Shown here: piece by piece, positions 8,057 to 38,851 of the stretch
How positions within the stretch are numbered: the stretch's first letter is position 1
Layout of the letters: every line of letters begins with the position of its first letter
DNA from: Coprinellus micaceus
Lineage: Eukaryota; Basidiomycota; Agaricomycetes; Agaricales; Psathyrellaceae
Reading direction: 5' to 3'
NCBI GenBank assembly: GCA_951394405.1
Contig: OX596343.1
Span: 1,116,001 to 1,180,000, forward strand
DNA length: 64,000 nucleotides
Made by a program: the position numbers and the translations under genes
Notes under the pieces: generated by a model
Seen by the model: only the letters and a program-made list of their open reading frames with translations
The model's database searches: none
Told to the model about the DNA's origin: nothing

Positions 8057-9660
8057 GACGTATAGCATGATCTCCATTTCGTTGGACTCGGCGTGAAGAC
8101 CCCAGCGTAGTAAGATTGAGGAACCCAAAGACAGCCGGAGAGCGACGTACTCTACGTTCAAAAGTCCCTTCCGCGTACCGTCAAAATCACCAGTCCTCCA
8201 GATAACACTGCGAGCAAACTCGATGCTCGGCGTCGTAACCGCGAGCTTCGCCTTTTCCAACGTCATCGCGTAGGTCCCGGGCTTCGAGGTTTCACCGGGC
8301 TTGTGAAGCCGTTGCTCAAGTCGGTGCGAGTTCTGCCACATTGGGAAAAATTTAGTGAGGGATACGTATCAGGGGGAAGACTGACCAGTATTGCGCCACG
8401 CCGTACTGGTGGCTCGGCTACGCCCTCCCTAGAGCATGATACTCTAGGTGGTAAAACCTCCCCAGAAATGAGCGCCTACAGATAATGACGGACGTTAGCA
8501 GCCGCCCATGAGAGGATTAACGCGAATTCAAAGGTGAGTAGGAGGAGTGAGTATTATAAAACTCGTCTTGTGACCTCACGTCGGGAAGTCCTTGAAATTC
8601 AAAGAAGAGGAAGGTGGATTCGGTGAGGAATGGAACGTACTGGTACCCGCAGAGGGCCGGGCTCCGGAGATGGGGTGCGGCTTGTAGGGTCCGTGGAGGT
8701 TCATTCGAAGGGTGGTCGAGTACGCAGTTGAGGGGTGTCCAAGGATCTGAGGAGGACTGCCTCCGGCGATCTGCAGTTTGGGTATGTTTAGAGTTGATAT
8801 CTAGATGGAATACTTCAGCGTCGGTGCCGCACCAAAATGGGGGACAGACATACAATCGCAAAGACGCCGTCGGGAGCCATCAGAAGGTCGATTCGTACGT
8901 CGCGCCAGGGGTGGTCATCCACGCTGCGAAGCCATTCTCCGACGCCCCATGAATCGCACCACCAGAGCGGAAGGTCAGAACCGGGGCCTCGTTGACATGA
9001 GACGTGGGTTCGTCGTGGGCCAGCTTGGGGGATATTTGTAGCTAGATGAGAAAGGGCCGAATTCAGGAACGAGGAGGAAAGGCTCACCCAATTGCGATAC
9101 CGTAGTCTATCAGACCTTAAGGACTCGTCGTCCTTCCCCACGTAGCCCCTACTACGCTTCTCGCTGATGCCGTTGCCAGAGTATTGTGGGCCTCCTTGCC
9201 TTCCTCGTCCCACATCTCGATCCCGTCGAACTTCAACGTCAACCTCGTCTCGCCGGCGCCTTGTCAACTGTGGAGATTGGACTGGCCTTGGTGCCTATGG
9301 TCGGGGAGTTCCGGGTCGAGGGGGAGGAATTATAGCGCTGTCCATGGTCGACAGCAGGACCGAAGCCAGAGAGGGAGAGGGAGAGCGCGTAGCTACACCA
9401 TCCCGAGGTTCGCTGCGGGAAGCCGCTTTGGAGAGGAAAGGCGTGGTCAGGGTCGGAGGTGCCGACTATGGAAAGAACGACGGGCGCACTCAATGGTGGA
9501 ATATACAGACCTGGCGCCTTCAGCGGGCAGAATGGCAGAGACCTCGAGTCGACGTGACTGAGGAAAGAGAAGGAACTGATGTCAACGATTGGACCCGAAC
9601 CTACGCCAATTGATTCGGCGCCTAAATGGGAGTTGAACCCGGCGATCACACTCTGGCTCT
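8057..9660 (-). pseudogene. Gene X remnant, copy 1 (unidentified multi-exon gene)
   Basis: I do not recognise the family. Segments on the minus strand read like true protein but cannot be joined without stops. They are LTLKFDGIEMWDEEGKEAHN (about 9,190-9,245), VLTFRSGGAIHGASENGF (about 8,930-9,000), a Pro/Ser-rich stretch with AYSTTLRMNLHGPYKPHP (about 8,680-8,730), and a C-terminal block GTYAMTLEKAKLAVTTPSIE followed by LNVEYVALRLSLGSSILLRW (about 8,070-8,280). Splice-like sites lie between them, for example gtgagcc...tctag and gtatgtc...ctgcag. In-frame stops and frame changes between blocks suggest decay. Copy 3 at 29,051-30,720 is nearly identical over long stretches; copy 2 at 18,842 is diverged. 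Confidence 0.45.
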
Positions 9661-9939
9661 TTGCTTGCTCTCTTCATCTTGCTTTCAAGGGCGAGATACT
9701 GCGATGGCGCTGCGACGTGTGATACAGGGTACGTCCGTCGTAGCTACAAATGGAAAGCATCGCTGACACGTCTTCCAACGCTTTCCTCGACACCCCACAT
9801 GTTGAAATCCCCGCACGTCACGAACCCCCATCCCTCGTGTTCTTACCGGCTGACCCTGCTTCCACCACCCTGTAAGATTGTGGGCCTGCCACTCCCAGCT
9901 CATCCGATGGGATTGCAGGGTTGCCTCTGTAGAAGTCGG

Positions 9940-10800
9940 TGAGTGCTGGAAACGATCCGAGCCGGGCTACACATTCTAAACAAGGAGTAGCGCCCGGCGC
10001 CCGGCCACTATCTCGCCCTTTCGTGTTGGGAATACCGAATCCACAGGGAAATCATTGCCCAGGTCCCCGCTCGGCCCCATCCGATCTCCAACTCCCGCCG
10101 ACGAAAGCAACCTCCCATCCGTACCGCCCCCACCACGCGAAACCTCTCCAAACCCCTTCATCTTTGCCAAGATCGCACGCGGGACCGACCTCCTCTCCCT
10201 TGCAAGCTCCCCACCAGCTCCCGGCACGTTTCCTTCAGGGCCAAGGAACGCGTCCGTTCCGTCGTGCAGCGCCGGACAAAGCTCTGAACCAAAAGCGGGG
10301 TCCCAACGCGAGTGTGGTGGCCCCGTTTGGCGCAGCGGGTATGCTGCATGTGAACCTGCGCTTGGAACGACGGTGAAGAGAAGTAAAGGGGCAACGTTCA
10401 CAACGGACTTTCAACGCGTACGACCTCGAGAGGGACGTGAAATTGCACGGGAGTAGCTTCAAGGGTCTGAAAGGCAGCAAAGCGCCTGTGAAGGTGAGTC
10501 GGGTTTATCGTATCTTTGCTATTCAACCTCGCTCAACGGTCGTTCAGGGAGCCCCTCCACAAAATAGAATGCGAATTCATATACCACCACACGCCAACAT
10601 CATCCCGGACCTCTCCCTCCATCCGCATCGCATCTGAGAAGACCCTCTCGGACAAGCAACCCCCACCCGTCCATCTACAATACCCGCGACGCCACGATGA
10701 ATGGAGTACACGTCAATCTCCCTGCGATCGAACGGTATGGCCCTCCCGTCGTGCAGGTCAAATCCTCAAGCCAGGACCCAGCTGGTGACGGGGCACTTCG
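9940..10800 (+). other. Degenerate plus-strand coding remnant between gene X and the SIN1 relic, copy 1
   Basis: Short readable blocks remain: NAYDLERDVKLHGSSFKG then LKGSKAPVK before a good donor (gtgagt, about 10,493), followed after an acceptor near 10,547 by YHHTPTSSRTSPSIRIASEK. The equivalent region of unit 3 (about 31,390-31,780) keeps the same donor position and a FHHPPNYEISPRHTRDLTLA block. This may be further SIN1-linked sequence or another gene. No family is recognised and stops are frequent. Confidence 0.3.
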
Positions 10801-10819
10801 ACGAACCTCATTCCCTCGT

Positions 10820-11850
10820 TATGCCGCCAGGTGGCCCCACTCCAAGCCCCCAACGAACAAGACGTTCACCTGTGCTGCGACTAGCTCGTACGCCGGGTCA
10901 CCTCGTGTTGGCATGTTGAATGGCCTATCCAAGTCGAGAGCGAGCCGATGTACGAGTTGTCGTCAATCGCTGCCGTCCTTGCCAGCGAATGACCGAGGAT
11001 GGGTGCGTACGCGGGGCCCATGCCACCAATCCCTTTCTGCCTCGTACCAATGACTCCCCCACCCGGGTCGGCGGGAGATGCTAGAAGCACTCGAGCTGGT
11101 TTGCAAGGGAAGGAAACCTCTTCGATTCCAAGAACCGCCCCATCGCCCTCGTCCTTCGCCCAAGTTCCGAGTACGAATATCATCGTCCCGCCGAACAGGA
11201 CCGGTACGATGCTACAATGGAACAGAGTGTCTTCTCGACGAGAGCGCACACTTGGCGAGCTTAGACCGACTGAGCGAGGAGATTAAGACACCAGATCCAA
11301 ACGGTGAGTTCTTTCGTGCTCTCTGACCCCGCGAAGGGTTGGGGAAACTGATGTGGAGTGCGCGATAGCCCTGATCTTCAAGGACACGAACCGGCCATCC
11401 AAGTAGCGACGTTCCTCTTTACTGAGTTTTGTCTTTGGTAACGAGGTAAGCACCTCGTCCTCCACACACCCATCTCGTCCAACAAATCGTTCGGTGCAGA
11501 AATAGACCATCAACCGCAAAATGCCCATGAATTGTGTACCTGACGAGACTGATAGTTCGCCATTGACGGCGTATACATCTGCCCGTTCTCGACCCACTGT
11601 TCACCAGTGGTCATTCCATTGACATTCCCTACTAGCCCACGCCGTCAACGAACACAGCCAAAGCCGTGTTCGACCACGCTGGCTAGACTGTGTCCTCCCA
11701 TCAAGTCCTTCGCCGACTGGCAGCCAACAGTCGCGCGCTGCTCTCCATCTTTTTGAACAAGGCAAGCCGGGACGAGCGGTGCAGCTTGGAGACGGAGAGC
11801 CGGAAGCTGGGAGTCGGGACGATGGATCGGTCGAGGAGGGTTCGTCGTCG
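10820..11850 (+). pseudogene. SIN1 relic 1
   Basis: A decayed copy of the SIN1 gene at 3401-6542, with remnants in the same order as the parent. PPGGPT and SSYAGS match the linker before the Ras-binding domain (10,830-10,920). MLEALELVCKGRK matches MQEALELVCKRRK (about 11,078-11,120). SAHLASLDRLSEEIKTPDPN matches the RAHLASLGL region (about 11,245-11,305), and it is followed by a donor-like gtgagt at the parent intron position. TAKAVFDHAG and then RDERCSLETESRKL match the PH domain (about 11,655-11,815). The frame changes several times and stops interrupt it, for example a TAG after DHAG. No full-length product is possible. CRIM and the N-terminal block are not recognisable. Confidence 0.8.
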
Positions 11851-12714: not shown

Positions 12715-15700
12715 TCATGGAGCATAGCATTTCTGCCACTGGTCACCGAGTGCGGCATTTGAAAGGTCGACGAAAGAACAGGGGTGCTCCCGAGTGATGG
12801 CGAGGCTGCATGGAGATCGGGGCAAGTGGGCATCGGGCGGCACATACATGAGGCGGTCATCAGGGTTGGAAGGGGAGAGAAGCCATCCTGTAAGTGTTTC
12901 GACACCGTCCTCGCTTTGGCTGACTTCGGAGGTGTAGGGGAGGGTTAAGTCCCACGCCCGTATTGACTCATCGTATGAGCCAGAGACAAGGCGCGTGCCA
13001 TCGTTTGAAAACGCAACTGAGTAAACAGGCGAAGTGTGACCTTTCAGCACTCTCTTCTCCTCGCCAGTCGCGGCATCCCACACACATACGGATCCGTCGT
13101 GTGAACCAGAGGCAATACATGCGCCATCACTCGAGACGGCAACTGCAGTAACTACTGCACCGGTATGCTCATCCAGTACTTTCTGTTCCCCCGCCGATCC
13201 CGAGACGATACGCGTGCCATCCCCCGAAAACGCAACTGACAAAACCAACCCAGAGTGGCCCTTCAGTACCTTCTGCTTCTCACCTGTCGCGGCGTCCCAT
13301 AGACATACAGAATGGTCGTATGAACCAGTGGCTATTTGCGTGCCATCGCTAGAGATTGCAATGGTCTTAACCTGGTCTGTGTGGCCCCACAGCTGCATCT
13401 GCTCCTCCCCTGTCACTGCATCCCACACACGGGCTGACGTGTCCACCGATCCAGAGACAATGCGGGTGCCATCAATTGAGAACGCGACTGAGTAAACCGT
13501 CCCAGTGTGGCCCTCCAGCACCTTCTTCTGCTCGCCTGACATAGCGTCCCATAGTCGGATTGAGCAGTCGTTGGATCCGGAGACAATGCACGTTCCGTCG
13601 TTTGAAAATGCGACTGACCAAATGGCCATGGTGTGTCCCACCAGCACCTTCTGCTGCTTTCCCGTCGTCGCGTCCCACACACGTATCGTCGTGTCGTCCG
13701 ATCCAGAAACTATCCTCGTACCATCACTTGAAAACGCGACCGAGTACACCGGGTGGGTATGGCCTTGCGATATTCCCTGTTCCTGGCCTCCCCCTGCCGC
13801 GTCCCACACACGAACTGAACCGTCTTCTGAACCAGAGACTATCAGGGTGCCATCGCCCAGAAAGCCAACAGACGTGACCGTGCCACTGTGGCCTTTCAGC
13901 ACCTCGGGGTCCTCATCTGTCAAGATATTCCACACCCGCACCAATGCTTTTTCGAACCCAGCAACAACCTGGGTACCATCAGGTGAGAAAGAAACGGAAT
14001 GAGGTGGGTTGGCGGCATCTTCGCTCTCCTTTCGCCATTGCTCCTCACCCGTCCCCGTGTTCCACACCACCACCGAGCCATAGAGGCCAGCAGCAATTCG
14101 ACATCCATCAGCTGAGAATGTAACAGAGCTGACATATGAGGGCCCCTCCAACACCTTCCGTATCTCTCCTGTCATGACGTCCCATATACGCACGGTCTTG
14201 TCCCGAGCGCCAGATACAATCATGGTGCCGTCCCTCGAGAATGCGACCGACCGAACAGGTCCAGCGTGCCCCTCCAGAACTCTCAATGCCTCCCCTGTTC
14301 TTCCGTCCCACACACGCACCAATGTGTCCTCAGAGCCAGACGCGATGCGTGCACCATCATTTGACAGAGCGACGGACCAAACCATGTCAGGGTGGACATA
14401 GAACAGTTCCTCCACTCCCGTCTCTGCATTCCACACGCACATGGCGCAGTCATCTGACCCCGACACGATCCGCGCCCCGTCACTTGAGGAGGCAACCGAT
14501 TGAACGTTCCCGGTGTGGGCCCATAACACCCGTTCCTCCTTGCCTGTCGCCAAAATCCACACCCGCACTGACCCATCCTCCAAGCCGGTAATAATCCGGG
14601 TACCATTGCATGCCAGTGCTATGGCGTAGACTTTGTGGCCCACTGGAATGCTCACCAACTGTGAAACCCCTGTTGCGCCCGTTATCGTAAAGTGAGGAAC
14701 CCCTGCAAAATGTTTCCTCCAGATTTCAAAAGGCTTGCCGTTGCGCCGCCAGGTTGCTAACGCGGATATGTAAAGGTGCGGGGTAGACAGTGCTGCTGGG
14801 CTTCCAGAGAAATATAGCGCAAAGGAAGCGACGTGGGTTAGCTGGTGAGCCAGTATTGCATGATGCTAATAGGGGTGTCAGTCTAGTACCGAATATAGAA
14901 TCGTTGGGTGAAGGAGACTTACTCCCACAGCCCATCGTCCGGCGGTTTGAAGCATTGCTTGACACTGACCACAGCATCCCAGGAGATTCATCGCCTCAAT
15001 CCAGAGCAGCACGTGGAGCTGGAGGAATTCCCCCAGGACCTTCGTGAGAGGGTCATCGGTGGTTGCCTTCGATGACAGTATGAGGTGGTGGCTCCAACTT
15101 CTGCAGGAGTAGTCCAAGATGGTGGGGATGCTCGCCTTAACGTCTTCCTTGAAGGCGTCATCGTCTCTGTCGAACGTAAAGGAGGTTGGTATATTCGCGA
15201 TGTTGAATCGAAGACCAGACGGCTTGGCGTTCATGATACGGAAGCATGATTCAGTGAGCCGTCGATGGTGTGCCGTTCCGTCACACCAGAATTCTTCCGG
15301 ACAGCGGTGTCGATCAAACATAAAGTCAGAAAAGGATTTGTGGTATGACAAGACATTCCGTTGCCCATCGGTGTACAGGACGGCGTGAAGGCGGCTGAGA
15401 ACAGCATCAGGTAGTTTGGTGGGTGCAGCAGGGGCAAGTTCGATCCTTGATGAATCTGCAGCTAGCAGATTACCCACAGTTGCTGTCGTGGTAGGCTCTG
15501 CGGTGCAGAGGAACGTGTAGAGTATATGGAGGCGTTTGGTACGGATGTCTCCTTCAAACTCCCCGAACGCTTCTGAGAGGATAGTTCGATAGAGCACATC
15601 GAGAAATGCGAAGTGCGCTCTGCGATCCCCCAGAGATTCAGATGGTTCTGCAGGACGGGTATGCGGAAGAAGTCTATTTATGATGTCGCTTTGTTCCTCT

Positions 15701-17873
15701 GGAAGGTGTGGCGAAAGATGCCTTGCCAGGGTTGCCGCACAGATGAAGAGGCCGTCTGCAAACCCGAGAAGCTTCTCCATTTCCTTGCGGCCCTGAAAGT
15801 GTGGGAACCCGACCTCCAAGTAGAGCTTGATGTCACGCTGCACATCCTCCTTCTCCACGTCTTGAAGGCGGAAAAGCTCTTTTCGATGGAAAGATTCAAC
15901 GTATTCAACAAGCTTCGGATCTGATCGGCTGGTGACCAAGAACTTGAGACCAGGCAGGTCATGTTCATTGAGCACAACAAGTAGAGCGCGAAGGAAGGTT
16001 GTCCCACCGTCGTTGATTAGCTCGTCGACAGCATCGACGAGAATCAGGTGCTGGTCATGAGAAGGGGTGGTGTCACTGGGGGTGGAACGCGATTCCTTCC
16101 AAGGGTTGACAAGGAGTCCGACTATTTGCGCGTCTACACCTTGATGGATGGCGTCGAACCTCCCAAAGCGCTCGAGAGCCAGGGCGAAGGGCTTGCACTT
16201 GAGGGAAAGCTGGTAAGCGATCGTGCGCACAATCTGGGATTCATGTCTTGCCCCTTCGAGCTGACGCGAGCAGAAGAAGTTACCTCCTAGCGCGATCCTA
16301 TCGTCCACGCCAACAGTCATTTCGAAGCGACGTGCGATGGTGTATGCGATGGTGCTCTTGCCGGAGCCAGCAGGGCCAAACAGCCAGAAAAGGCTTTCGC
16401 CATCCTCGCTATTTGCCCATTTGGTCATCTTATCCAGGATGGGAGCACGCGTCCCGGGAGTGCAGGGCACCCGAAGCAACTTCTCCTTCCCCGGCCCAAC
16501 ATATTTGTAGTCAGCCACGTCGGAGATTTCAAGGTCTTTCCTCAGCGATCTCTGCGATGGAAATGAGGGCCCGCCGCTGGATACACAATGGGTACAGGAG
16601 ACATACCTTAAGAGTGTTATCGATTGCATCCGCCATCTCGCACAATCTGATGCTACTGTCAAGCTGTGTTGCGACATTTAGTTGACAGAGAGAGGGAATT
16701 GAGATGTAGGACAGACCTCAAATCTCATTCTTGCGTCGTTAGCGCTCTCAAATATCTTTTCAATCTGATTCCGCTCACTCTTGTGATCTCTGACCACCTT
16801 TGCAGTTGCGCATTCCTGTAGCTGGCGTAGCTTCTCTGATGCGGAGCTCAGTGCGCTACACCCACAACATAGGTTAGTTGAGTTATCTTATGAAGTCATG
16901 TTCCACGACCTTTTGAACCCCTGCATCGGGGAGTTCTTCTGCCAACCGGCTCCCTCAGGCCATCGCTGCAGCGCTCTCTCTACGATCAACAGTTGGCCTG
17001 CCATCGACGCGATCCGTGTTTCGACAACATCCAATCCGCCTCGCAAATCCTGCGGTATTGGTTACGTTCTGAACAAAGACGCCGAAAGGGGCAGTTTGTG
17101 AAGGACAGACCTGGCTGATCTTGGTGACCATCTTGGCGATCTCAAGGATCACTTCCGCTGGGTCCCCTGCCTCCCCGAGGTCAGGCAGCCTCTTTAAAAG
17201 TGTCTCCGTGAAGGTTTGATTGATAGTCCCTTCATTAGGCGGGGGGGCATTGAGCTCTTTGTGCACAAATCGGTCCGCAAGACTCACCATGGTTGTCCCC
17301 GAGTATTGCGTTCCCGATGTGGTTGATGTGATAATGATTTGTCGTTTGAGCTGTCCAATGATTCGCCGTGTGAGCTCCCGTCGGAAAGCTACTCTTGGAA
17401 CGACGGGAAGGTAAAGTGAGTTGAAAGTGTACTTACCGATGGTAGTCTCTTCTGGTCTTTTGAAACTGGTCCTGGTGGTCTCGTCGATTGATATCGGAGA
17501 CAAGTGTCTGTAAGTCTAGGTTTCAGCATGATAAACATGAAATAACGGAGGACATCGCAACATACTCTTGGTCATGGAGCGGCGCCCCAGAATCAGATAC
17601 GCGTAGTTTCTTACTCGGACTGTAGCGAGGATACAACGATCAGTGAGCCGGGGCTCAATAGTGAAGCGTCGCAATGGCGTACGGTTTGGGGGCTTGGTCA
17701 GAGTTTTGTCTCTTGGGGGGCACGCAGAGGTAGGGTGTTGAGCCAATCGAATCGTCTTGTACCCTTTCCTCTCTTGGGGCATTCGAATGAGCTTCCTGTC
17801 CGCTGGAAGGATGCGGACGATGTCCTGATGATGAGGACCCGGGAGGGTACGCGATCTCGTCGAGCTGACCCAT
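12715..17873 (-). CDS. NLR-type receptor 1: N-terminal helical domain - NACHT - WD40
   Basis: STAND-class ATPases of this plan act in fungi as incompatibility/immune-type receptors: the repeats sense, NACHT oligomerises on ATP, the N-terminus signals. Ten exons (minus strand): 17683-17873, 17566-17619, 17437-17507, 17288-17350, 17111-17229, 16910-17049, 16717-16855, 16607-16663, 14923-16551, 12715-14865; 1,537 aa in phase. Residues 1-105 are Pro/Ser-rich; about 106-127 form a Gly/Asn/His-rich segment (NHYHINHIGNAILGDNHG); 128-280 are helical (INQTFTETLLKRLPDL, ASMAGQLLIVERAL, MADAIDNTLK). NACHT: Walker A GPAGSGKST near 337-345, Walker B LVDAVDEL near 449-456, sensor LKFLVTSRSD. From about 880 there are 14 WD40 repeats; number 12 lacks about 12 residues including its WD dipeptide. 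The start used by paralogues (ATG-TCC) is ATA here, at 17898-17900; I chose the next in-frame ATG. Confidence 0.88.
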
Positions 17874-25700: not shown

Positions 25701-27901
25701 TTGTTCTCCTTCAGTGAATCGGGGTGGGTCGGGTGCTAGATATCTCGCAAGGGTCGCCGCGCATATGAACAGGCTGTCCGCAAAAGTGAGGAGTACTTTC
25801 ATCTCGCCACAGCCTACGAAATGGGGAAAGTGTTCTTCCAAGTACAGTTTGATGTCGCCTTGTACTTCCTCTTTCCCCACATTTTGAAGATGGTAAAGCT
25901 CCTTCCGATGGAAGGATTCGATGTGCCTCTCCAGCATTGGGTCTTGTCGACTGGTGATGAAGAACTTGAGGCCGGGCAAGTCCTCTTCCTTTATGACATC
26001 GAGCAGGTTGCGTAGAAACCTCGGGGCCCCGTTTTTCACTAGCTCGTCGACAGCGTCAATGATAATGAGGTAGTCGGAGCGGGAGGATGGCGCCTCATTG
26101 GGACTGGATCGAGACTCCTTCCATGGTCCAACCAGGAGCCCCTGGATCTGAGCACGGACGCTTTGATGGACGGTGTCAAATTTGCCCGAACGATCTAGGG
26201 CATCGGCAAAGGGCTTGCACTTGAGAGCCAGGTGGTATGCAATTGTGCGAATGATCTGGGATTCATGTCGGGCCTCTTTGACTTGACGCGAGCAGAAGAA
26301 ATTTCCTCCTAGCACGATGGTATCGTTGGTATCAGACGTGAGCTCGAAGCGGCGAGCGATGGTGTAGGCAATGGTGCTCTTCCCAGAGCCAGCAGGACCG
26401 AAAAGCCAGAAGATGCTCTGCCTTCCGTGATTGGCCCATTGTATGATCATGTCCAGAATGCGGACACGAGTCCCGCACGTGCAGGGCACGCGATAGAGTG
26501 TCTCCTGGTCCTCGCCGGCATATTTGTAGTCGGCAGCGTCGGACGCTTCGAGCTGGGTCTTGAGGTATCTCTGTCATAGGAATGAGCGCTGCAGAAATCT
26601 GGTCCATCTGCTACGCTAACCTTGAGTCTTTCCTCGATTGCGTATATCATGCTGTATAATCTAATACTAGTTTCCAGCTGGAAACAGCGAATAAGCTTGC
26701 GTATATGTGCGGAAAGAATGGTGCATACCTCGAATCGCATCCTCGCTTCGTTGACACGCTCGAAGATCCCCACCATCTGACTTTTCTCGGACTCATGGTT
26801 GACAAATTTCCCGACAGTGTGCTGGAGTTGGTAGAGATTCTTCACTTCGACTGCCAAAGCGCTAAATATCATGGGTGAATCACTTGCTCTCACTGAGAGG
26901 GTACATAAGCATTGTCACCTTTTAAACTGCTTCATACCCGGATTGTTTTCACCGGCATCAGGCCGCTCCTCAAGCGCCTGCTCTACAATCAGCAGTTGGG
27001 CGGCTGTTGATGCGATTCGTATTTCCACGGCGTCCATGTTGCGTTCCATATGCTGTGATGTTGGTTTCTGAGCCTGAGAATCCGAGGGATGAAGATTGAA
27101 AATGACAGACCTCTCTAATCTCAGTGACCACCTTCGCGATCTCGAGAATAGCCTTCACTGGGTCTCTCTCATCCTCCAAGTCGGGGAGCTTCCCCAGGAG
27201 CGTCTTCGTGAAGCTTTGATTTATGATGCCTTCGGAGGGCGCGTGACGTTGAGCATTTTGCAAACATGCAGGCGCATCCGGCTCACCGTAGCTATCTCCA
27301 AAGTTTGCGTTCCCTATGTTGCCAATGTGGAAATGATTCGCCGTTTCAGCTATCAAGCAAATTGTCGTGTGAGCGGCCACTTAGCCTTTGGAAACGGTGA
27401 TGGATGGGGTACATTAAAACCACACTTACAGACCCAAGTCTCCACCGGAACGTTCAAACTCGTCCTACTGGGAGTGTCATCAATTGACATCGGTGACAAG
27501 CGCCTGTAGTAGACGTTTCAGTGTTACAAGCATGTAAAGACAAAGGCCCGCAGCATACTCTTGGTTATCGTCGAGGGATGGCGCCTGAGGATTAGATACA
27601 GGAAGCGTCTTGCCCAGGCTGTGGTGGGCATGGCAATTGGTTCAGATTGAAGCCTTGTAAACGGGACAACGCACGATTTGGGAGCCTGGTCAGAGTTTTG
27701 TCTCTTTGGGACCTCGCAGAACGTGGGCGTTGGGGGAATCAAGGGGCCTTGTACTCCTTCCTGAGCCGGGGAATTGGGGTGAGCTTCCCATCCGGGGGAA
27801 GGAGGGTGCTGCAGACGATGCCGCAACGATGAGGACCCAGGAGGGTACGCGATCTCGTCGAGCTGGCCCATGTAGGAACCTATGCCTCCGGTGTGGGACA
27901 T
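22779..27901 (-). CDS. NLR-type receptor 2: N-terminal helical domain - NACHT - WD40
   Basis: Same ten-exon plan as receptors 1 and 3 (minus strand): 27675-27901, 27559-27618, 27430-27503, 27287-27349, 27111-27229, 26919-27052, 26729-26861, 26621-26677, 25014-26570, 22779-24962; 1,535 aa. The start is the ATG at 27,901, in the same place as in receptor 3. The Gly/Asn/His segment is NHFHIGNIGNANFGDSYG (about 123-140). The helical region contains ILEIAKVVTEIRE, STAAQLLIVEQALEERP and EARMRFE...SIRLYSMIYAIEE, a pattern like the MLKL/HeLo-type bundles seen in many basidiomycete receptors. NACHT: Walker A GPAGSGKST near 347-355, Walker B LIIIDAVDELV, sensor LKFFITSRQD. Fourteen WD40 repeats follow; repeat 11 ends VRDA instead of VWDA. 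The N-terminal exons differ most from receptors 1 and 3 (exons 6 and 7 are each 6 nt shorter). Confidence 0.9.
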
Positions 27902-28400
27902 GGCGAGGTCGTGGTGTGGGTCGAAGCTGTTCAGTTCAAAGCCGCATAATCTGCCTCGCGCTGGCCGAATCCGTCGAGCACAGCCAAGCTGTCGTTATTT
28001 GTGAACGCCACCGTATTCCACTCCTGGAAGACAGAGCGCTTACTTGCTGCGATGGCCATCATAGTCCAGTAGTGGCTTTTGAAGACCCATGAAGCCCTGG
28101 ATCGTCGAACCCTGAAGACGGGGTTCGAGGGACCTTGAGTTTGAAGTAACTCGGCGTTGATTTCTTCTTCGACAAAAAGCGCCTCATATCATTACTACGA
28201 GGCCCATCGGGGGAAAGTGGCAGAATTTGAGGGATCCTGAGCACAACCTCGCGACGATTCTGAGGCGACGAGAGACCTTGAAGCTGTGAGTGGATGGCAA
28301 AAGCTTGAACACGGAGTCGTGCTCTCACCGACGGTATTGAAACTCCGCAGCAAAACATTGTCACGTGCACGTACACGAGCGCTTAAGTGCTTTCCGAGCA
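27902..28400 (-). promoter_or_regulatory. Conserved upstream region of receptor 2
   Basis: Aligns in blocks with the upstream region of receptor 1, including gcgcttaagtgct at 28,379-28,391 at nearly the same distance from the start. In-frame stops rule out a continuous exon. Interpreted as a duplicated promoter and leader. Confidence 0.35.
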
Positions 28401-29050
28401 TAACTTCAACTTATTGCCTGTAGTCTGCGACAACGTGGCTGGACGCGGACCTAGAGTTTTACCTGGGAGTACGGATGGCCACCCTGCATAAGAACCGATG
28501 GCTATCCCGTACCAATCTGGCGAGAGGGCCGAAATGGTCGGTCGAGTGAACTTGCGCCTTTGTAAAAGGAGTTGTATTCTCCAGGCACTTGCCAACGACT
28601 CCAAATTCGCGTTAGAAACAATTTCATTCCTCCTTGACGCTGAAAAGTGTAAAGAAGCTACGGGTAGTACGCATTAGCTCAACGAGTAACGATGACAAGC
28701 GCCCTTGGACGGGAAATGAAGCTGGCCTCCAGACGCTACACGACTGGGCGCGGGGTGTTCTGTGCGCCGACTCCATCGAACCCAGAAAGCATTTATAACG
28801 GAGGAAATGCGGCGTATGGACGCCTTTTGTCCAGTCTGCACAAGTCCCACCACAAGATCTGGGCTGGAACCTGCGATAGCACATAGGGCGCGGGTCCTAC
28901 AGTTATTTACCTATGTCACCTCAGGCTGATGGGCATGGAGAACTATGCGCCGGCGTCGCCATCCCTGACAAAGATCCCAGAGGCTCGTACACACGTCGCT
29001 CGAACTATAGGAGTATGGGGATGATATTTAACGAAGGCGAATTGAGAGCA
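28401..29050. other. Spacer between receptor 2 and gene X copy 3
   Basis: No gene or repeat recognised. Confidence 0.35.
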
Positions 29051-30720
29051 ACGTACAGCATGGCCTCCATTCGCTGGACTCGGCGTGAAGACCCGAGCGT
29101 AGTAAGGTTGAGGAACCCAAAGACAGCCGGAGAGCGACGTACTCTACGTTCAAAAGTCCCTTCGGCGTACCGTCAAAATCACCAGTCCTCCAGATAACAA
29201 TGCGAGTCGGCGATATTCCCAGAACCGTTAACTCGTTCTCGATGGATGACGCTTACGTCCTTAGCAAACTCGATGCTCGGCGTCGTAACCGCGAGCTTCG
29301 CCTTTTCCAACGTGATCGCGTAGGTCCCGGGCTTCGAGGTTTCACCGGGCTTGTGAAGCCGTTGCTCAAGTCGGTGCGAGCTCTGCATTGGGAAAATTTT
29401 AGTGAGGGATGCGTATCAGGGGAAAGACTGACCAGTATTGCGCCACGCCGTAATACTGGTGGCTCGGCTACGCCCTCCCTAGAGCATGATACTCTAGGTG
29501 GTAAAACCTCCCCAGAAATGAGCGCCTACAGATAATGACGGACGTTAGCAGCCGCCCATGAGAGGATTAATGTGAAGACAAAGGTGAGGAGGGGGAGTGG
29601 GTATTATAGAACTCGTCTTGTGACCTCACGTAGAGAAGTCCTTGAAATTCAAAGAAGAGGAACGTAGGAATGGAATGTACTGGTACCCGGAGAGGGTCGG
29701 GCTCCGGAGATGAGGCCTGAGGTGCGGCTTGTAGGGTCCGTGCAGGTTCATTCGAAGGATAGTCGAGTACGCGGTTGAGAGGTGTCCAAGGATCCGACTT
29801 GAGGAGGACTGCCTCCGGCGATCTGTAGTTTAGGTGTGCGTTGAGAGTTCAGCATCACTGCTGTACCAAAACGGGGGTAGACATACAATCGCAAAGGCGC
29901 CGCCGAAACCCACCCTGTCTGTGGGGACGCCCATGAACGGCCCGCCAGACACGCAACCCATCCATTGTGCCAGGGGTGGTCGTCCACGCTGCGAAGCCAT
30001 CCCCGACGCCCCATGAATCCTACAACCAGAGCGGAAGGTCCGAACTAACGCGCCGTTGGCATGAGAGGTGGGTTAGTAGAGGGATAGGGGATATATCGGT
30101 ATTGTGCGAGGCCATCCCTGCCGCCTCGTTCCTGATGAGAAGGGGCCGAATTCAAGAACGAGGAGGAAAGGCTCACCAAAATCGCGATCCTGTCGTGGAC
30201 TCGACCTTAAGGACTCGTTGTCGTTCCCCACGCCACTTCTACCACACATCTCGCTGATGTCAGAGCGTTGTGGGCCTCCTTGCCTCCCTCGTCCCACAAC
30301 TCGATCCCATCGAACTTCAACGTCAACCTGGTGTCGCCGGCGCCTCGTCAACCGTGGAGATTGGACTGGCCTTGGGGCCTATGGTCGGGGAGTTCCGGGT
30401 CGAGGGGGGGGAATCATAACGCTGTCCATGGTCGACAGCAGGACCGAAGCCAAAGAGGGAGAGCACGTAGCTACTCCACCCTGAGGTTCGCTGTAGGAGG
30501 CCGGTTTGGAGGAAAGGCGTGGCCAGGGTCGGAGGTCCCACTGCTGGAGGAACACCGGGCACACTCAATGGAGGAGTATACAGACCTGGCACCGTCTGCG
30601 GGTAGAATGACAGAGCTCTCGAGTCGACATGACTGAGGAAAGAGAAGGAAGTGATGTCAGCGATTGGACCCGAACTGCCCGCCAATTGATTCGGCGTCTA
30701 AATGGGAATTCAATATTCAA
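29051..30720 (-). pseudogene. Gene X remnant, copy 3
   Basis: Nearly identical to copy 1 (8,057-9,660) over long stretches, including a run of about 110 bp without visible change around 29,457-29,566 against 8,408-8,517. Minus-strand blocks are the same (LTLKFDGIELWDEGGKEAHN near 30,310; GTYAITLEKAKLAVTTPSIE near 29,300). Copy 3 carries about 57 bp more at 29,208-29,264, with a donor-like gtaagcg and a gttaac branch-like word on the minus strand; copy 1 lacks it. This looks like an intron kept in copy 3 and deleted in copy 1. Stops prevent one continuous product. Family unknown. Confidence 0.45.
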
Positions 30721-31179
30721 CGCCGCGATCACATATGCTCTGCCTTCAAAACGCCGATGTTGCTTTCAGGGGCGAGGCACTGCGAGGACGCTGCCATGAC
30801 CCCAATCAGCGATGGTAGGTCCGTTGCGTCAACGAATGGAAAGCGTCCTGACTCGGACATGGCTTCCAGCCCTCGCCTTCCTCGTCTCTCCCACCCGCAA
30901 CTGTTGAAAACGCGCGATGACCCCCACGTTCCCAGCTTTCAGCTATCGTAACAACCGTCCTTTCCTTCACCACGCTGTACGATTGAGCCCCACTGCGTCT
31001 TCGGCACGTAGAGCCTTGCCATTGCTGCACCCAGCTCGCCCAGACGTGACGGGGAGCGTAAGGGGGGCTCACATTTGCAGAATTTGGTGAGCGCTAGAAA
31101 CGATTCTGGCTGGGGATTAGCGCCACTGAACCATTGAGGCTTGAAACGCTAGTCACCATCTTGACTTTGCGCGTCAATG

Positions 31180-31900
31180 CGTCAAGAACGCCAAATCGGC
31201 ATCCCACACGCCTCGTCCCTCTCCCCGACCTCCGCGGTAAAACCCACTGTACTCTCAAATCTCCCGCACCCTTGTCACAATGAAATTCTGGCTCTCCCTC
31301 GCCATCGGGGCCGCGCCAGGGATCGACCCTCCGTCACTTCCCATCCCCGCTGGCATGACTCCCAAGGCAGTCGAGCACTGCTAGCGCAGCGTGCAGATTA
31401 TTACGAGGCTCTGAAACAAGGAGGGTGCGACAATGCGACCACAACGGCTTCAAACGCGCTCAACGGACTGGAGACGCTGCATGGCAGAACGTTGAGCTTG
31501 GACCGGAAGGGGGAGGGGAATTTGACGCAGGCTGAGGTGTTTGGGTTCTCGGCGTGTATGACCTCGAGCGGGATTTGACGGGATGCAAATTACTTTGAGG
31601 GACGGGAAACCTTTGGGCTGTCTGTCAAGGTAGGTTTATACTTCGCATTATTTGACACTTGCTCAACGTTCGCGTAGGGATGCCCTCAGTGGGAACGATT
31701 TCCACCACCCCCCAAACTACGAAATCTCACCCCGCCACACCCGCGACCTGACACTAGCATCCACGACATTCCCCTTCATCTACACTGTCACGCCTAGCGA
31801 CAACGCCAAGCCACCGTCTTCCATCCCCTCACCTGCGGTACCCGCGACAACAAGATCTCTGTCACAGAGGTACACCGAACTTTTGGCGACCAAAATATAC
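31180..31900 (+). other. Degenerate plus-strand coding remnant, unit 3
   Basis: Equivalent of 9,940-10,800. It starts with ATG at 31,279 and a hydrophobic run (MKFWLSLAIGAAPG), then frame-shifted blocks such as YYEALKQGGCDNATTTASNA and FHHPPNYEISPRHTRDLTLA flanking a donor/acceptor pair (about 31,630 and 31,678). The N-terminal run resembles a signal peptide. No family recognised; stops are present. Confidence 0.3.
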
Positions 31901-31923
31901 GACTCGGTTGCGCATTCGACGGG

Positions 31924-32610
31924 GATCATGAAGCCAAGATCCATCGCCGGCCCAGCCGAATCACAAGTTCCTAGAAACTTCTGACCTCCGCCTTCACCCC
32001 CGCTGTGTCGCCAGTAGCCCCACTACCCCCACAATGCACGGCACCAGTCTAGATAGATCCTCTTGCGAGCGAAGATTTGGGATGCATAGGAGGAGGATCA
32101 AACGCATGTGAGCTCGACGATATTTGCAGATGGGCTCCTATATTATCCAAAATTTCTACGCCATACCCAGGACTAACCCCTTCTGCAGATTGACGGGCGT
32201 GTACATGCGAGAAGACATTGAATTCGTTTGAGTACGACGCTGTCTCTTCAACCCCAAGTAATACGAACCTCTCCTTCGCCCGTTCATTCAAACGTCGGTC
32301 GCCCCATTGGACAGGCTCATCGCGAACCTCAAAGGTATAGTGGGGTGTACCCCGACGAGCGATCCCACTCGCTATGCCTTTCGCTTCCTCACCCTAACTT
32401 CCTTGTGGGGCTTATACATACCCCATCTACCACCTACATCATAGCCGCAGAAGCTCACCGTCGACGGCATGTACCTCCGCCTTCGTCCTCCCCCCTCCTT
32501 TCCAATAGCTATTCTACCGTCATTCGCTCACAGGTTATGCAAGCTGTGAACAAAGCCAATAAGGACCATATCCGACCGCGTCGGCAGGACCTGGTGTCCC
32601 CGAAGTCCAA
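31924..32610 (+). pseudogene. SIN1 relic 3
   Basis: Decayed copy of SIN1. EAKIHRRPSRITSS matches EAKIQRRPSRIMNS of the parent (31,930-31,971). GVYMREDIEFV, stop, VRRCLFNPK, stop, then APLDRLIANLKG matches the Ras-binding domain from GMYMQEALELV to PLDRTVASLQG (32,199-32,338), with two in-frame stops. LTVDGMYLRLRP matches LAIDGVYIHV (about 32,457-32,490), followed by a retained intron-like stretch ending in acag and QAVNKANKDH, which matches PSTNKAKAVFDH (about 32,540-32,570). The remnant ends inside the PH domain. It retains different parts of the gene from relics 1 and 2, so decay was independent. Confidence 0.8.
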
Positions 32611-33648: not shown

Positions 33649-36600
33649 TCAAGGTATTGGAGTATAGCATTCCTGCCACTGGTTACCAACTCTAGCATCT
33701 GCAAAGTCGATGGAGGAGCAAGGTGGCTCGCGCATAATGGTGAGGCTGCATGGGGCCTGGGGCAAGTGTGGATCGGGCGGAACGTACATGAGGTACTCGC
33801 TTGGGTTGGAAGGGGAGAGAAGCCATCCAGTGGGGTAGCTGGAGGCGCCACCCTGGCTTTGGATGGCGTAAGGAAGGTTCACTGACAAGTCCCACACTCG
33901 TATTGACTGGTCCTTTGAGACAAAAACGATGCGTGTGTTGTTGTGAGAGAATGCAACCGACCAAATCCGAGATCTGTGGCCCTTCAGTACCCTCTGTTCC
34001 TTGCCGGTCGTGGCATCCCACACTCGTATGGAACCGTCATCCGAACCAGAGGCAATCCGTGTGCCATCACTCGAGATTGCGATGCTGTTCACATCGCCGG
34101 TATGGCCCCACAGTACTCCCCGCTCCTCCCCAGTCGTGGAATCCCAGACACGTATTGATTGGTCCGCCGAACCGGAGACAATGCGTGTGCCGTCCCCCGA
34201 AAACGCAACCGACCAAATGGAATCGGTGTGGCCCTTCAGTACCTTCTGCGCATCGCCGGTCGCGGCATCCCACACGCGTATGGAATGGTCGTCTGAACCA
34301 GAGGCAATTTGTGTGCCGTCACGTGAGATTGCAACAGCATTAACCTCATCGGTATGACCCCATAGCTGCATCTGCTCCTCCCCTGTCGCCACATCCCACA
34401 CGCGGGCTGACTTGTCGCGCGATCCAGAGACAATGCGAGCGCCGTCGCTTGAGAACGCCACTGAGCGAACCCCCCCAGTATGGCCCTTGGTAACCTCCTT
34501 CTGCTCGCTTGATATGCCATCCCATAGTCTTATTGAGTGGTCGTCGGATCCGGAGACAATACATGTTCCGTCGTTTGAAAATGCGACTGACCAAATGGCC
34601 ATGGTGTGTCCCTCCAGCACCTTCTGCAGCTTCCCTGTCGTCCCATTCCACACGCGTATAGACCCGTCCCCAGATCCGGACACAATCCTGGTGCCGTCAT
34701 TCGAAAATGCCGCTGAGCAGACCCGGTATGTGTGACCCTGCGGCTGTCCAGCCTGTCCTTGTGCCTGGCCTCCCCCCGCCGGATCCCACACGCAAACTGA
34801 ACCATCTTCCGAGCCGGAGACTATCTGGGGGCCATCACCGAGAAAGGCGACAGAACTGACCGCGTCACTGTGGCTGCTCAGTGTTTCCGGCCCCATATTT
34901 GTCGAGATATTCCACACCAGCACTGACGCATCCCCCAACCCAGCAACAACATGTGTGCCATCAGTTGAGAAAGCAATGGACTTCACCTGGCCGTTCCCTG
35001 CCAACCGCGTTCGCCGTTGCTCCTTACCCGTCCCTGCGTTCCACACTGCCACCAACCCATCGAAGCCAGCAGCAATCCTGCTTCCATCAGCTGAGAAAGC
35101 AACGCAGTTGACGCTTGGCGATGACGTAGATGCCCGCACCAACAGTTTCTGCCTCTTTCCTGTGATTGCATCCCATGTACGCACTGAACCGTCCCGAGAG
35201 CCAGACACGATCCTGGTGCTATCCCTCGAGAATGCGACTGATTGAATAGACTGATTGGTACCAGTGGGGCTCCCCACCTCCCTCAGCACCTCCCCTGTTC
35301 TTCCGTCCCACACACGAATCTGGCGCCCCGAGGTAGATGCAATGCGCGTGCCATCATTTGACAGAGCGACGAACCAGACGGTACCAGGGTGGGCATGCAT
35401 CCATTCCTCCACCCCCGTCTCTGCATTCCACACACGCATCGAGTGGTCGTCCGACCCTGACACGATTCGGACTCCGTCGCTTGAGGAGGATACCGAGCAA
35501 ACCTTCGCGGTGTGGCCCTTTAACACCTGTTTCTCCTTGCGCGTCGCCAAAATCCACACCCGCACCGAGCCGTCCTCCAAGCCCGTAATAACCCGGGTAC
35601 CATTGCATGCTAGGGCAATTGCATACACCTTGCAGCCCACTGCGATGTTCACCAATGGTGAAGCCCCTTTTGCACCCTTCATCGGCGTAGAATGAGGGAT
35701 CCCTGGAAAATGCATCCTCCAGTTTCTGAAAGGCTCGCAATCACGCCGCCAGGTTGCCAATGCAGATATGTAGAGGTGAGGGGTAGACACTGCGGCTGGG
35801 CTTCCAGAAAAGTATAGTGCAAAGGAAGCGACTTGCGCTAACTGGACAGCCAATATTGCATGCTGCTAACGTGGATGTCAGTCCAGCACAGATTCATCGC
35901 CTGAAGGGACACTCACCCCTGTGGCCCATCGATAAGCAGCTTGGAGCATTAGCGGACACTGGCCACGGCATCCAAGGAGGTTCATGGCCTCAATCCAGAA
36001 CAGTACACGAAGTTGAAGGAATTCCGCCAGGATCGGGCAGAGTAGGTCATCCGAGTCAGCGGTCGCCTCGGACACCACCAGTAAGAGGTGGCGACTCCAA
36101 CTTCTGCAGGAGTAGTCCAAGACGGGGGGGATGTTCACCTTGATGTCCTCCTTGAGGGTGTCATTGTCTCTGTCAAATGTGAAGGAGGTCGGTATATTTG
36201 CGATGTTGAATCGAAGACCGGAAGGCACGGCGTTCATGACGCGGAAGCAAGATTCAGTGAGCCGTCGATGATGCACCGCATTGTTAGGCCGAAATGGTTC
36301 CAGACAGCGCTTAGGGTCAAACATGAAATCGGAAAATGATTTGTGGTAGAAGAGGATGCAGTCTTGGGCGTCGGTATACAAAACCGCGTGGAGGCTGGAA
36401 AGGACAGCGGCGGGAATCGAGTCGACCGACAATAGAGCACCCACGGTGCCTGCCGTCGTGGGCTCCAGGGTGCAGAGGAAAGTGTGAAACACCTCGAGGC
36501 GTGTTGCCAGGATGTCACCGGCATACTTCTTGAAGGCTTCTGAGAGGATCGCACAATACAGGGCATCGAGAGACCCCGTTGCTTGGCTAGTTGCTTGATT

Positions 36601-38851
36601 GTCTGACAGCTTCTGGATGACGGCGCATTGCTCGCCTGGGGTGAATCGGCCGGATGCTGGTTCGAGATATCTCTCGAGAGTCGCCGCACAGATGAAGAGG
36701 CCATCTGCAAAGGTGAGGAGGATTTCCAACTCGTCACAATCCTTGAAATGGGGGAAACATTCTTCCAGATATAGTTTAATGTCTGCTTGGACCTGGTCCT
36801 TTCCCACATCTTGGAGGCGGAAAAGTTCTTTCTGCTCGAAGGAATCGACGTATTGGACAAGGTTCGCGTCCGACCGGCTGGTGACCAAGAATTTGAGACC
36901 AGGCAGATCGTGTTCGTTGAGGACGGTAAGTAGAGCACGAAGGAAGGTTGGGCCGCCGTCGTTAACTAGCTCGTCAACAGCGTCGATGACAAATAAGTAG
37001 TCATCCTGGGAGGGGGTGGTGCTTTTAGGAGCGGACCGTGATTCTCTCCAAGGTTCAACAAGCAATCCAACCAGTTGCGCGTCGACACTGTGGTAGATGG
37101 TATCGAACTTCCCGAAGCGCTCGAGAGCCAGTGCAAAGGGCTTGCACTTGAGGGCAAGGTGATAGACAATCGTGCGGACAATCTGGCATTCATCTCTAGC
37201 CCCTTCAAACTGACGCGAGCAGAAGAAGTTGCCACCCAGCAAGATTTTGTCGTCCGCGCCTACGGTCATCTCGAAGCGACGTGCGATCGTGTAAGCGATT
37301 GTGCTCTTGCCAGAGCCAGCGGGACCGAAAAGCCAGAATAGCTTTTCGCCATTGCCATTCGCCCATTTGATCATCGCGTCCAAGATGTGGACGCGAGTCT
37401 TTGGCGTGCATGGTACACGATGCAAACTTTCCTTGCCCTTGCCGACGTATTTGTAGTCGGCTACGTCGGACACTTCGAGATCTTTCCTCAGGGATCTCTG
37501 AAGCGGAAATGAGGATATATACGGTGTGCAGGTGAGGCGGGCAGACCTTGAGGGTGTTGTCAATGGCGTCCACCATGTAGTACAATCTAATGCTAGTGTC
37601 GAGCTGTATTGCAAGGCCGGGTCAAGGGACAAGTGAATGAGAGAAACGAGTAGATCACACCTCAAATTTCATTCTTGCGTCGCTAACGCTCTCAAATATC
37701 TTTTCGATCTCATTCCGCTCGCTCTCGGGATCTCCGGCCGTCTTCGCAGTTGCGCATTCCTGCAGCCGGCGTAGCCCCTTCAACGCGGAGCTCAGTGCAC
37801 TATGCCCATGACATGGATTAGTTAGGTTCTCCTATGAGGTCGAGGTCTACGACCTTTTAAACGCCTGTATCGGGGAGTCCTTCTGCCGACCCGCGCACTC
37901 AGGCGAGCGCTGCAGCGCTCTCTCCACGATCAACAGCTGAGCTGCCATCGACGCAATCCGTGTGTCGACGACACCCATGTCGCCTCGCAAATCCTGCGTT
38001 ATCTTAGACAAAGAGTCCGAAAGAGGGGGTTCGGAAACGACAGACCTGGCTGATCTTCGTGACCATCCTCGCGATCTCAAGGACCATTGTTGCTGGGTCG
38101 CTTCCCTCCCTGAGGTCAGGTAGCCTCTTCAAAAGTGTCTCCGTGAAGGTTTGATTGATGGTCCCTTTAGTGGGTGTGGGTATTGAGCTCTTGTATGCAC
38201 ATTGGTTGGTGCAACTCACCGTGGTTGTTTCCAAAGATCGCGTTCCCGACGTTTCCATCAATCTGGATCTGGACAGGACCACGACAATGAATCGTCGTCC
38301 CAGCTAGAAGGAAATTTCCATATCAGCGGCCATCGCATCGTCTTTCGAGGACCGAGGTAATGGGTGAGGGAAACTGGAACCACACTCACAGGCCCTGGAC
38401 TCTTCCCGTACATTGAAACTGGTCCTACTGGGGGTGCTATCAATTGGCACCTGGGACGAGAGCCTGAAGCAGAACCTTCAGCTCAAAGATATGTGAAGAC
38501 AAGGAACCGCAGCATACTCTTGGCCGCCGTCGAGGGTTGACACCCGAGAGTCAGACCCACGAAGTTTCTTGCTTGAGCTGCGGTGAGCATGGTAGTTAGC
38601 TTGCTGCGCCCAGATTGAAGTATTGTGACGACGTACGGTTGGGGATCCTGGTTGGAGTTTTGTCTCTTTGGCAGCTCGCGTGGCAGGTCTGCTGGATAGG
38701 GACCTTGTACTCCTCCTTCGGCTGGAGCGTCGGGCTGAGCATCCCACCCGCTGGAAGGAGGCTGCTGCGGCAAAGATGAGGACCCAAGAGGGTACGTGAC
38801 GTTGTCGAGCTGGTCTTCCGTGGAGGAGCCTGTGCCTACACCGTCGGACAT
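33649..38851 (-). CDS. NLR-type receptor 3: N-terminal helical domain - NACHT - WD40
   Basis: Ten exons (minus strand): 38637-38851, 38518-38577, 38390-38463, 38220-38303, 38046-38164, 37854-37993, 37661-37799, 37547-37603, 35917-37497, 33649-35865; 1,561 aa in phase. The start is the ATG at 38,851; an upstream in-frame ATG at 39,001 exists, but that stretch is not open in the paralogues. The Gly/Asn segment is 21 nt longer than in the others and reads VQIQIDGNVGNAIFGNNHG. NACHT: GPAGSGKST near 354-362, LFVIDAVDELV, LKFLVTSRSD. The WD40 part has 14 full repeats, most close to the VAFSxDGTRIVSGSxDxSIRVWD pattern, consistent with two seven-bladed propellers. The C-terminal tail GWLLSPSNPSEYLMYVPPD is shared by all three receptors. 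No break is seen. Confidence 0.9.

What the first reader, a model, noticed from the sequence alone, without database searches (positions are those of the whole stretch)
8057..38851. Threefold tandem expansion of an immune-type receptor together with a housekeeping-gene fragment
Three receptors of identical ten-exon plan, each preceded on the left by a dead SIN1 copy and a dead gene X, with periods near 10.1 and 10.9 kb. All three receptor frames are open over more than 1,500 codons, while every passenger copy is broken. That contrast suggests selection on the receptors (for example as allorecognition loci) and not neutral amplification.
Basis: partly seen in the sequence, partly recalled or inferred. 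Interest (0 to 1): 0.85.

Follow-up and report, generated by a model that had tools for sequence, protein, structure and literature searches.

The report
Fungal immune-receptor gene array
In a mushroom-type fungus, a family of large intracellular immune-type receptors has multiplied in place, dragging along broken parts of two household genes, and the receptors stay intact while the tips of their sensor propellers change fast; this is a well-built example of a known kind of receptor, not a new kind.

Summary
The window (C10:1116001-1180000 of a 50.3-Mb assembly) carries three NACHT-WD40 receptors; the contig carries six in about 166 kb. All six are open: 1,535-1,560 residues in five; R5 lacks recognisable exons 1-2. 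The passengers are parts of two genes that occur once in the genome: the front of SAM50 (Omp85) joined to the back of SIN1. This junction, found in six units, is best read as the footprint of one tandem duplication, amplified to at least seven receptor slots, five now filled. Selection is supported: median omega 0.15 in NACHT, 0.38 in WD40; in WD40 blades 8-14 the four fastest positions have the spacing of the four published as under positive selection in Podospora het-d/het-e. Third-position tests show exchange tracts. Allorecognition is neither shown nor excluded; with at least 154 NACHT-type matches in the genome, a general non-self repertoire is likelier. The output signal is open: an MLKL-like bundle is only hinted at by relatives. 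New member of a known kind.

The parts
3476..6550 (+). SIN1 (TORC2 subunit), the only full copy, left anchor of the array; both ends approximate
   Evidence: CRIM 6.3e-32, SIN1_PH 9.5e-18; one CRIM match in the genome; 3' exons read by eye, with a short intron near 5.9 kb assumed to avoid an in-frame stop
6980..7570 (+). Intact 196-residue ORF of unknown function where the first receptor slot would be
   Evidence: no Pfam match; 7 distant relatives in the genome, 25-38% identity
8016..9880 (.). X1: passenger block without codon periodicity
9907..10698 (+). Front part of SAM50, dead (unit U1)
10748..11808 (+). Back part of SIN1, dead (unit U1)
12715..17873 (-). Receptor R1, NACHT-WD40, ten exons, start codon shifted by 10 codons
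18043..20086 (.). X2 passenger block (matches in pieces)
20540..21252 (+). Front part of SAM50, dead (unit U2)
21258..21979 (+). Back part of SIN1, dead (unit U2)
22779..27901 (-). Receptor R2, NACHT-WD40, ten exons
28071..30985 (.). X3 passenger block (matches in pieces); part of it is about 96% identical to X1 8078-8615 outside gaps
31244..31881 (+). Front part of SAM50, dead (unit U3)
31907..32590 (+). Back part of SIN1, dead (unit U3)
33649..38851 (-). Receptor R3, NACHT-WD40, ten exons

Best explanation
A lineage-specific array of NLR-type non-self receptors under birth-and-death evolution. Founding step (inferred from the shared junction): in an ancestral order SIN1 -> <- receptor, X, SAM50 ->, one tandem duplication from within SIN1 to within SAM50 left the fusion SAM50-front|SIN1-back between the copies. 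Later unequal crossing-over between the long units (inferred) multiplied receptor, X and junction together and filled and emptied slots; exchange tracts shuffled segments between copies (shown by tract tests). Each receptor works, by inference from its domains, as a STAND switch: a WD40 array of about 14 blades, probably a double propeller, binds a variable ligand at its top face, NACHT exchanges nucleotide and oligomerises, and the N-terminal part (a helical bundle before NACHT, possibly MLKL-like, and a short motif) triggers a response such as regulated cell death. Purifying selection keeps the switch; diversifying selection works at about four positions per blade.
For: Domains: NACHT/NPHP3_N and WD40; Foldseek matches of a homologue's model to Apaf-1, CED-4, NRC1, Avs3 and NLRP3. 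Six open copies without internal stops, whereas 200 neutral simulations of the R2 coding sequence at 0.1 substitution per site gave a mean of 14 stops and a minimum of 5. Omega and blade positions. Top four positions with the spacing of Paoletti et al. 2007 (passages). Exchange tracts R3-R4, R4-R5, R1-R4, each p=0.001. SAM50|SIN1 junction in six units; SAM50 scores 93-142 against a maximum of 23 in 60 shuffles, SIN1 scores 29-104 against 25. CRIM and Omp85 match once each in the genome. The six form one clade, support 100/97, sister to a Coprinellus aureogranulatus protein. No receptor relics elsewhere in the 204 kb examined.
Against: Function is inferred from domains only; no expression, ligand or strain data. 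dS is high for several pairs. The 15 pairs are not independent and the likelihood code was my own. Held-out tests of the blade positions gave omega 1.00, 1.33, 1.35 and 1.23, the first no more than neutral. None of the five receptor N-termini scanned matched MLKL_N; only some homologue pieces did, below the cut-off where a score was shown. Foldseek and VIA-align also rank ORC and clamp-loader ATPases high, as any AAA+ core would. The breakpoint is blurred by decay: SIN1 matches begin at 5246 in two units and further in in the others, and in U2 the SIN1 score near the junction is only 29 against 25 (a longer match there is). The ancestral gene order was not seen in another species, and SAM50 now lies inverted on the left of SIN1, which needs a further rearrangement.
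Confidence: 0.73

Rival explanations
1. The array is an allorecognition (heterokaryon incompatibility) locus: alleles differ between strains and the WD40 tips detect variants of a partner protein of the same species, triggering cell death on fusion.
For: The four fastest blade positions have the spacing reported for het-d/het-e in Podospora; about 14 blades, and a double propeller was proposed for reactive Podospora alleles (passage).
Against: At least 154 NPHP3_N matches in the genome make it unlikely that any given cluster is an incompatibility locus; repeats are not near-identical within a gene (64-73% nucleotide identity in the within-copy matches of R1-R3); no polymorphism data; no HET domain in the N-termini of the five copies scanned.
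Confidence: 0.15
2. Neutral tandem amplification: copies persist by chance and look intact because they are young or are overwritten by exchange.
For: Exchange tracts exist, and truncated passengers are amplified with the receptors.
Against: Median dS is 0.80 and omega 0.31, with omega below 1 in 15 of 15 pairs; no stops in six coding sequences of 4.3-4.7 kb, where neutral change would give many.
Confidence: 0.05
3. The unit was assembled and spread by a rolling-circle (Helitron) element that captured pieces of SAM50 and SIN1.
For: Gene fragments are joined; a Helitron_like_N ORF lies at w108656-112900 in the same region.
Against: The fused pieces are the front of one gene and the back of another in the same direction, both full genes lie beside the array, and the close copies found are all on one contig: the expected footprint of a tandem duplication. 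Helitron ends were not looked for.
Confidence: 0.07

Closest known systems
Agaricales NACHT-WD40 proteins (Coprinellus, Candolleomyces, Ephemerocybe, Galerina, Psilocybe, Pholiota)
   Same: Full-length ones of similar length (many about 1,400-1,660 residues), pre-NACHT helical domain, NACHT, long WD40 array and a similar C-terminal tail; several species show their own multi-copy groups in the tree
   Different: Best match 53% identity; whether any carries SIN1/SAM50 passengers is unknown, as no genomic context was available
Podospora anserina HNWD genes (het-d, het-e, het-r)
   Same: NACHT plus WD40 with fast positions in the same two pairs per blade (codons 7, 9, 25, 27 there; 16, 18, 34, 36 in my numbering)
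   Different: No HET domain found in the five copies scanned; repeats not homogenised; about 14 blades in every copy, one of them shortened by 12 residues in R1; no pseudogene copies seen here, whereas the Podospora NWD family has two RIP-inactivated ones (passage)
NLR clusters of Sordariales (PMC12258605, passages)
   Same: NLR genes close together on a chromosome
   Different: There 16 of 272 clusters consisted of paralogous copies and clusters held two to five NLRs; here six paralogues on one contig
Basidiomycete MLKL-like (BaMLKL) NLR N-termini and HRAM-like motifs (PMC9815663)
   Same: Predicted helical bundle before NACHT in a homologue; short motif with a G[DN] pair in exon 4
   Different: No MLKL_N match in the five receptor N-termini scanned; the motif pattern was found only at the six receptors, so no partner effector was found

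Membership tests
NLR / STAND NACHT-WD40 receptor | NACHT-type NTPase with Walker A | tested here: met
   PF05729 30.2-41.6 bits, cut-off 26.7, and PF24883 62.7-72.2 bits, cut-off 24.8, in R1-R3; GPAGSGKST in all six
NLR / STAND NACHT-WD40 receptor | C-terminal superstructure-forming repeats | tested here: met
   WD40 E-values 1.7e-114 to 1.2e-133 in R1-R3; about 14 blades by eye, one shortened in R1
NLR / STAND NACHT-WD40 receptor | Nucleotide-dependent oligomerisation and downstream response | not testable with these tools
   Needs biochemistry
HNWD (het-d/het-e type) | N-terminal HET domain | tested here: not met
   No HET match at E up to 1 in the spliced N-termini of R0-R4, 5 of 6 copies; R5 not scanned
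HNWD (het-d/het-e type) | Over 80% identity among WD40 repeats within a gene | tested here: not met
   Within-copy matches in R1-R3 64-73% identical in DNA; the figure of 80% is from PMC12222747 (passage)
HNWD (het-d/het-e type) | Diversifying selection at two pairs of positions per blade | tested here: met
   Top four positions 16, 36, 34, 18; same spacing as codons 7, 9, 25, 27 (passage); held-out omega 1.00-1.35 for the five positions chosen in each split
HNWD (het-d/het-e type) | Allelic incompatibility | not testable with these tools
   No strains
BaMLKL-type N-terminal domain | Four-helix bundle related to MLKL | tested here: inconclusive
   For: helices 128-150, 155-199, 210-231, 241-284 in the model of homologue P0004; MLKL_N matched by 4 of 11 pieces at E up to 1, best 0.00043. 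Against: 0 of 5 receptor N-termini matched; ribonuclease 3 chains (0.0003) outrank MLKL chains (about 0.15) in the PDB sequence search; the structural second look was filled by the NACHT part
HRAM-like amyloid signalling motif | Same motif in a partner effector of the genome | tested here: inconclusive
   One degenerate 24-base pattern, no mismatch allowed, found only the six receptors; reversed control 1

The most novel reading that the evidence does not exclude
This array is an allorecognition locus of a mushroom-forming fungus whose receptors read partner variants through the same two residue pairs per WD40 blade as Podospora het-d/het-e, although the two lie in different phyla and the N-terminal parts differ. 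That would make a basidiomycete incompatibility receptor directly testable.
Probability: 0.15. Interest if true: 0.75.

Novelty: new member of a known kind. Interest (0 to 1): 0.48.

Why it matters
Fungal NLR repertoires are large and, in basidiomycetes, still poorly described (PMC9815663, passages). Here the way one cluster grew can be read from the DNA (a junction between two household genes), and six copies of one receptor give enough divergence to map selection position by position. The match of the fast positions to those of het-d/het-e suggests that the same propeller face is used for recognition across two fungal phyla, and it names the residues to compare among strains in a search for the ligand.

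Tried and rejected
Rejected: assembly artefact (copies differ by about 20-33% overall); neutral amplification. 'Gene X' as a protein-coding gene: no consistent codon periodicity in the ungapped blocks of three pairs of copies; one short block (8078-8214) has all 5 of its differences in one phase, too few to weigh. What X is remains unknown. Receptor relics in the two empty slots: none found by tblastn (E up to 0.1) or blastn (E up to 0.01) in the 204 kb with the six copies masked. A partner effector sharing the N-terminal motif: none found with one pattern. In the VIA-align second look MLKL was not among the 50 listed rows, which mostly covered NACHT; this excludes nothing. The two C9 stretches examined proved to hold a separate group of about 40% identity. 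One search's identities of the SIN1 pieces (72-79%) and its indel counts come from gap-permissive alignment and are not used; BLAST gives 58.6-79.5% in pieces, the highest over 44 bases only.

Mechanical failures: one search aligned one wrong stretch (row y, inside a receptor) and was discarded. The gene predictor made wrong choices at the 5' exons of several copies and at the 3' end of R4; models were corrected from the alignment. Only part was used in places: one search scored the 7,991 candidates sharing most words; one search scored 150 of 425 candidates; one search's tree holds 62 of 100 available rows (six receptors and 56 of P0001-P0057).

Literature: PMC9815663 (passages and one section), PMC4986451, PMC12258605, PMC12222747, PMC1805685 and PMC2873952 (passages). 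Other papers were seen only in listings. No paper on a SIN1/SAM50-linked NLR array turned up: a search with those words returned none.
Full report
What is there. The window is C10:1116001-1180000 of a 50.3-Mb assembly in 17 contigs. Window coordinates are written w; w plus 1,116,000 is the contig position. Three receptors lie on the minus strand: R1 w12715-17873, R2 w22779-27901, R3 w33649-38851. Their large exons match NACHT/NPHP3_N and WD40. A DNA search of the whole genome found further close copies on the same contig: R0 w-16287 to -11100 on the plus strand, R4 about w134412-139602 and R5 w145283 to about 150071 on the minus strand. Six copies thus lie in about 166 kb. Two C9 stretches found by the same searches hold another group, about 40% identical in protein.

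Gene plan. A 5' alignment of the six copies gives ten exons with shared splice positions in R0-R4. R5 has no recognisable exons 1 and 2 and may start at an ATG at w150071. The plan is a prediction: there are no transcripts, the acceptor of intron 4 is AAG, and in R2 and R5 that intron is also open when read through. R1 has lost the common start codon and has another 10 codons on. The coding sequences give 1,537 (R1), 1,535 (R2), 1,560 (R3), 1,545 (R4) and 1,544 (R0) residues, and 1,442 in the part of R5 that was aligned, without internal stops (the one stop counted in R4 is its true end, followed there by a few extra bases). I count about 14 WD40 blades in each; R1 lacks 12 residues of one.

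Passengers. Left of each receptor in the array lies the back part of SIN1, and left of that the front part of SAM50. I recognised the second from an Omp85 match at w-6969 to -5926, in the place where the cassette block matched. The SAM50 model has 504 codons including the stop, in four exons, at w-7030 to -5351, minus strand. CRIM (SIN1) and Omp85 (SAM50) each match once in the genome. In six units the SAM50 match breaks off at -6307 to -6464, that is some 60% into the gene, and SIN1 follows from about 5246, after the CRIM domain. Local scores are 93-142 for SAM50 and 29-104 for SIN1, against maxima of 23 and 25 in 60 shuffles of one stretch; the weakest is SIN1 in unit U2, 29, where one search has a longer match at 3e-44. 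The exact base of the break cannot be read: SIN1 matches begin at 5246 in two units and further in in the others, as expected if the same junction has decayed. The front of one gene followed by the back of another, in the same direction, is what a tandem duplication from within SIN1 to within SAM50 leaves. The ancestral order would be SIN1, receptor, X, SAM50. Six junctions mean seven receptor slots; five are filled (R1-R5). The slot after full SIN1 (about w6.55-8.0 kb) and the one at about w129.1 kb are empty, and no relics were found there or elsewhere in the 204 kb examined. R0 lies outside the array, tail to tail with full SAM50; the present inverted place of SAM50 needs a later rearrangement that I did not resolve. 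Between R3 and the next X lie about 81 kb holding, among other things, a Ty3-type integrase and a Helitron-type ORF.

X itself. In ungapped blocks X1 and X3 are about 96% alike over w8078-8615 (21 differences in 535 positions, my sum) and less alike to the right, a sign of recent exchange.

Selection. Pairwise codon likelihood (own GY94 code): median omega 0.15 in NACHT, 0.23 after NACHT, 0.34 before NACHT, 0.38 in WD40, 0.40 in the tail, 0.49 in the N-terminus, 0.31 overall with median dS 0.80. Omega was below 1 with likelihood ratio above 3.84 in 15 of 15 pairs for pre-NACHT, NACHT, post-NACHT, WD40 and the whole, in 11 of 15 for the tail and 8 of 15 for the N-terminus. Two N-terminal pairs gave runaway dS values and are meaningless. 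A neutral simulation of R2 at 0.1 substitution per site gave 14 stops on average and never fewer than 5 in 200 runs. So the receptors are kept.

The sensor. In blades 8-14 the pN/pS ratio by position peaks at 16 (1.35), 36 (1.21), 34 (1.17), 18 (1.14), then 15 (0.91); GH is 12-13 and WD is 41-42. Blades 1-7, with more gaps, were not analysed this way. A joint model gave omega above 1 at positions 15, 16, 18, 34, 36 in 15 of 15 pairs (median 2.31; likelihood ratio above 3.84 in 11 of 15) against a median of 0.24 elsewhere. Those positions were picked from the same data. With choice and test on different blades or copies, the five chosen positions were the same set in two of four splits and shared four with it in the other two; omega there was 1.00, 1.33, 1.35 and 1.23, and 0.23-0.26 elsewhere. 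Paoletti et al. 2007 report codons 7, 9, 25 and 27 of the Podospora WD40 repeat under strong positive selection, each pair around a site under purifying selection (passages). My top four have the same spacing (+2, +16, +2), around V17 and D35, which change little (pN/pS 0.38 and 0.12). For a random choice of 4 of 42 positions this would happen in 42 of 111,930 cases (arithmetic). The seven high dN/dS positions used in PMC12222747 (passage) fit best at one cyclic offset; 11 of 20,000 permutations reach that fit. I could not check the two papers' numbering against a printed repeat, so the match rests on spacing.

Exchange. On polymorphic third positions present in all six copies (1,082 sites), R3-R4 share a tract at R1 residues 314-495 (86% against 63% outside), R4-R5 at 722-842 (94% against 63%) and R1-R4 at 152-224 (87% against 52%), each p=0.001, the smallest value that 1,000 shuffles allow; R1-R2 (0.007) and R1-R3 (0.011) are weaker and the other ten pairs are above 0.05; p-values are per pair, not corrected for 15 pairs.

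Kinship. Of 98 homologues, the nearest is a Coprinellus aureogranulatus protein at 53% identity. In a tree of 62 rows the six receptors form one clade (100/97) with that protein as sister (100/100). The genome has at least 154 NPHP3_N matches; only 150 of 425 candidates were scored and I saw no C10 place among the rows listed, so the number is a lower bound. In Sordariales, by contrast, 16 of 272 clusters were of paralogous copies (PMC12258605, passage).

N-terminus. A model of homologue P0004 (mean pLDDT 73.5) shows a helical stretch at 128-284 before NACHT. For the core, Foldseek lists Apaf-1, CED-4, NRC1, NRC2, Avs3 and NLRP3, along with ORC and clamp-loader ATPases; VIA-align puts ORC chains first. 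For the bundle, Pfam MLKL_N was the most frequent match among 11 pieces of family members (4 of 11, best 0.00043); the scores I saw, 18.6 and 12.8 bits, are below the cut-off of 27. None of the five receptor N-termini R0-R4 matched it, and MLKL chains come at E about 0.15, behind ribonuclease 3 at 0.0003. PMC9815663 (passages and one section) describes MLKL-like domains as common in basidiomycete NLRs and HRAM-like motifs with a G[DN] pair. Exon 4 of each receptor here carries a motif of that look (such as NYYHIQHVGNANFGDNYG in R5); a 24-base pattern for it occurs only in the six receptors. These are leads, not demonstrations.

Verdict. A real, well-preserved NLR array of an agaric-type fungus, best explained by tandem duplication and exchange, with purifying selection on the switch and fast change on the sensor face. 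Allorecognition stays a hypothesis.

Noticed in passing
G000:C7:943765-964150: Six NPHP3_N matches within about 20 kb: another dense receptor cluster in the same genome.
   Followed up: no
G000:C9:1385631 and 1405386 (L023, L024): A second group of similar receptors, about 40% identical in protein to the C10 six, with a further match at C9:1426977.
   Followed up: partly
window:6980-7570: Intact 196-residue single-exon ORF in the empty first receptor slot; seven distant relatives (25-38%) scattered in the genome.
   Followed up: partly
L015:805-2112 and L016:4656-8900 (w94805-96112, w108656-112900): Ty3-type integrase with chromodomain and a Helitron-type ORF in the roughly 81-kb stretch that separates R3 from the rest of the array.
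   Followed up: no
window:8078-8615 and about 29070-29666: Two X copies about 96% identical (gaps left out) on the left and less alike on the right: probable recent exchange in a non-coding block.
   Followed up: partly
L009:3653-5173: A 507-residue ORF left of R0 with a sub-threshold match to Abi_alpha (E 0.00052, 20.5 bits against a cut-off of 29).
   Followed up: no
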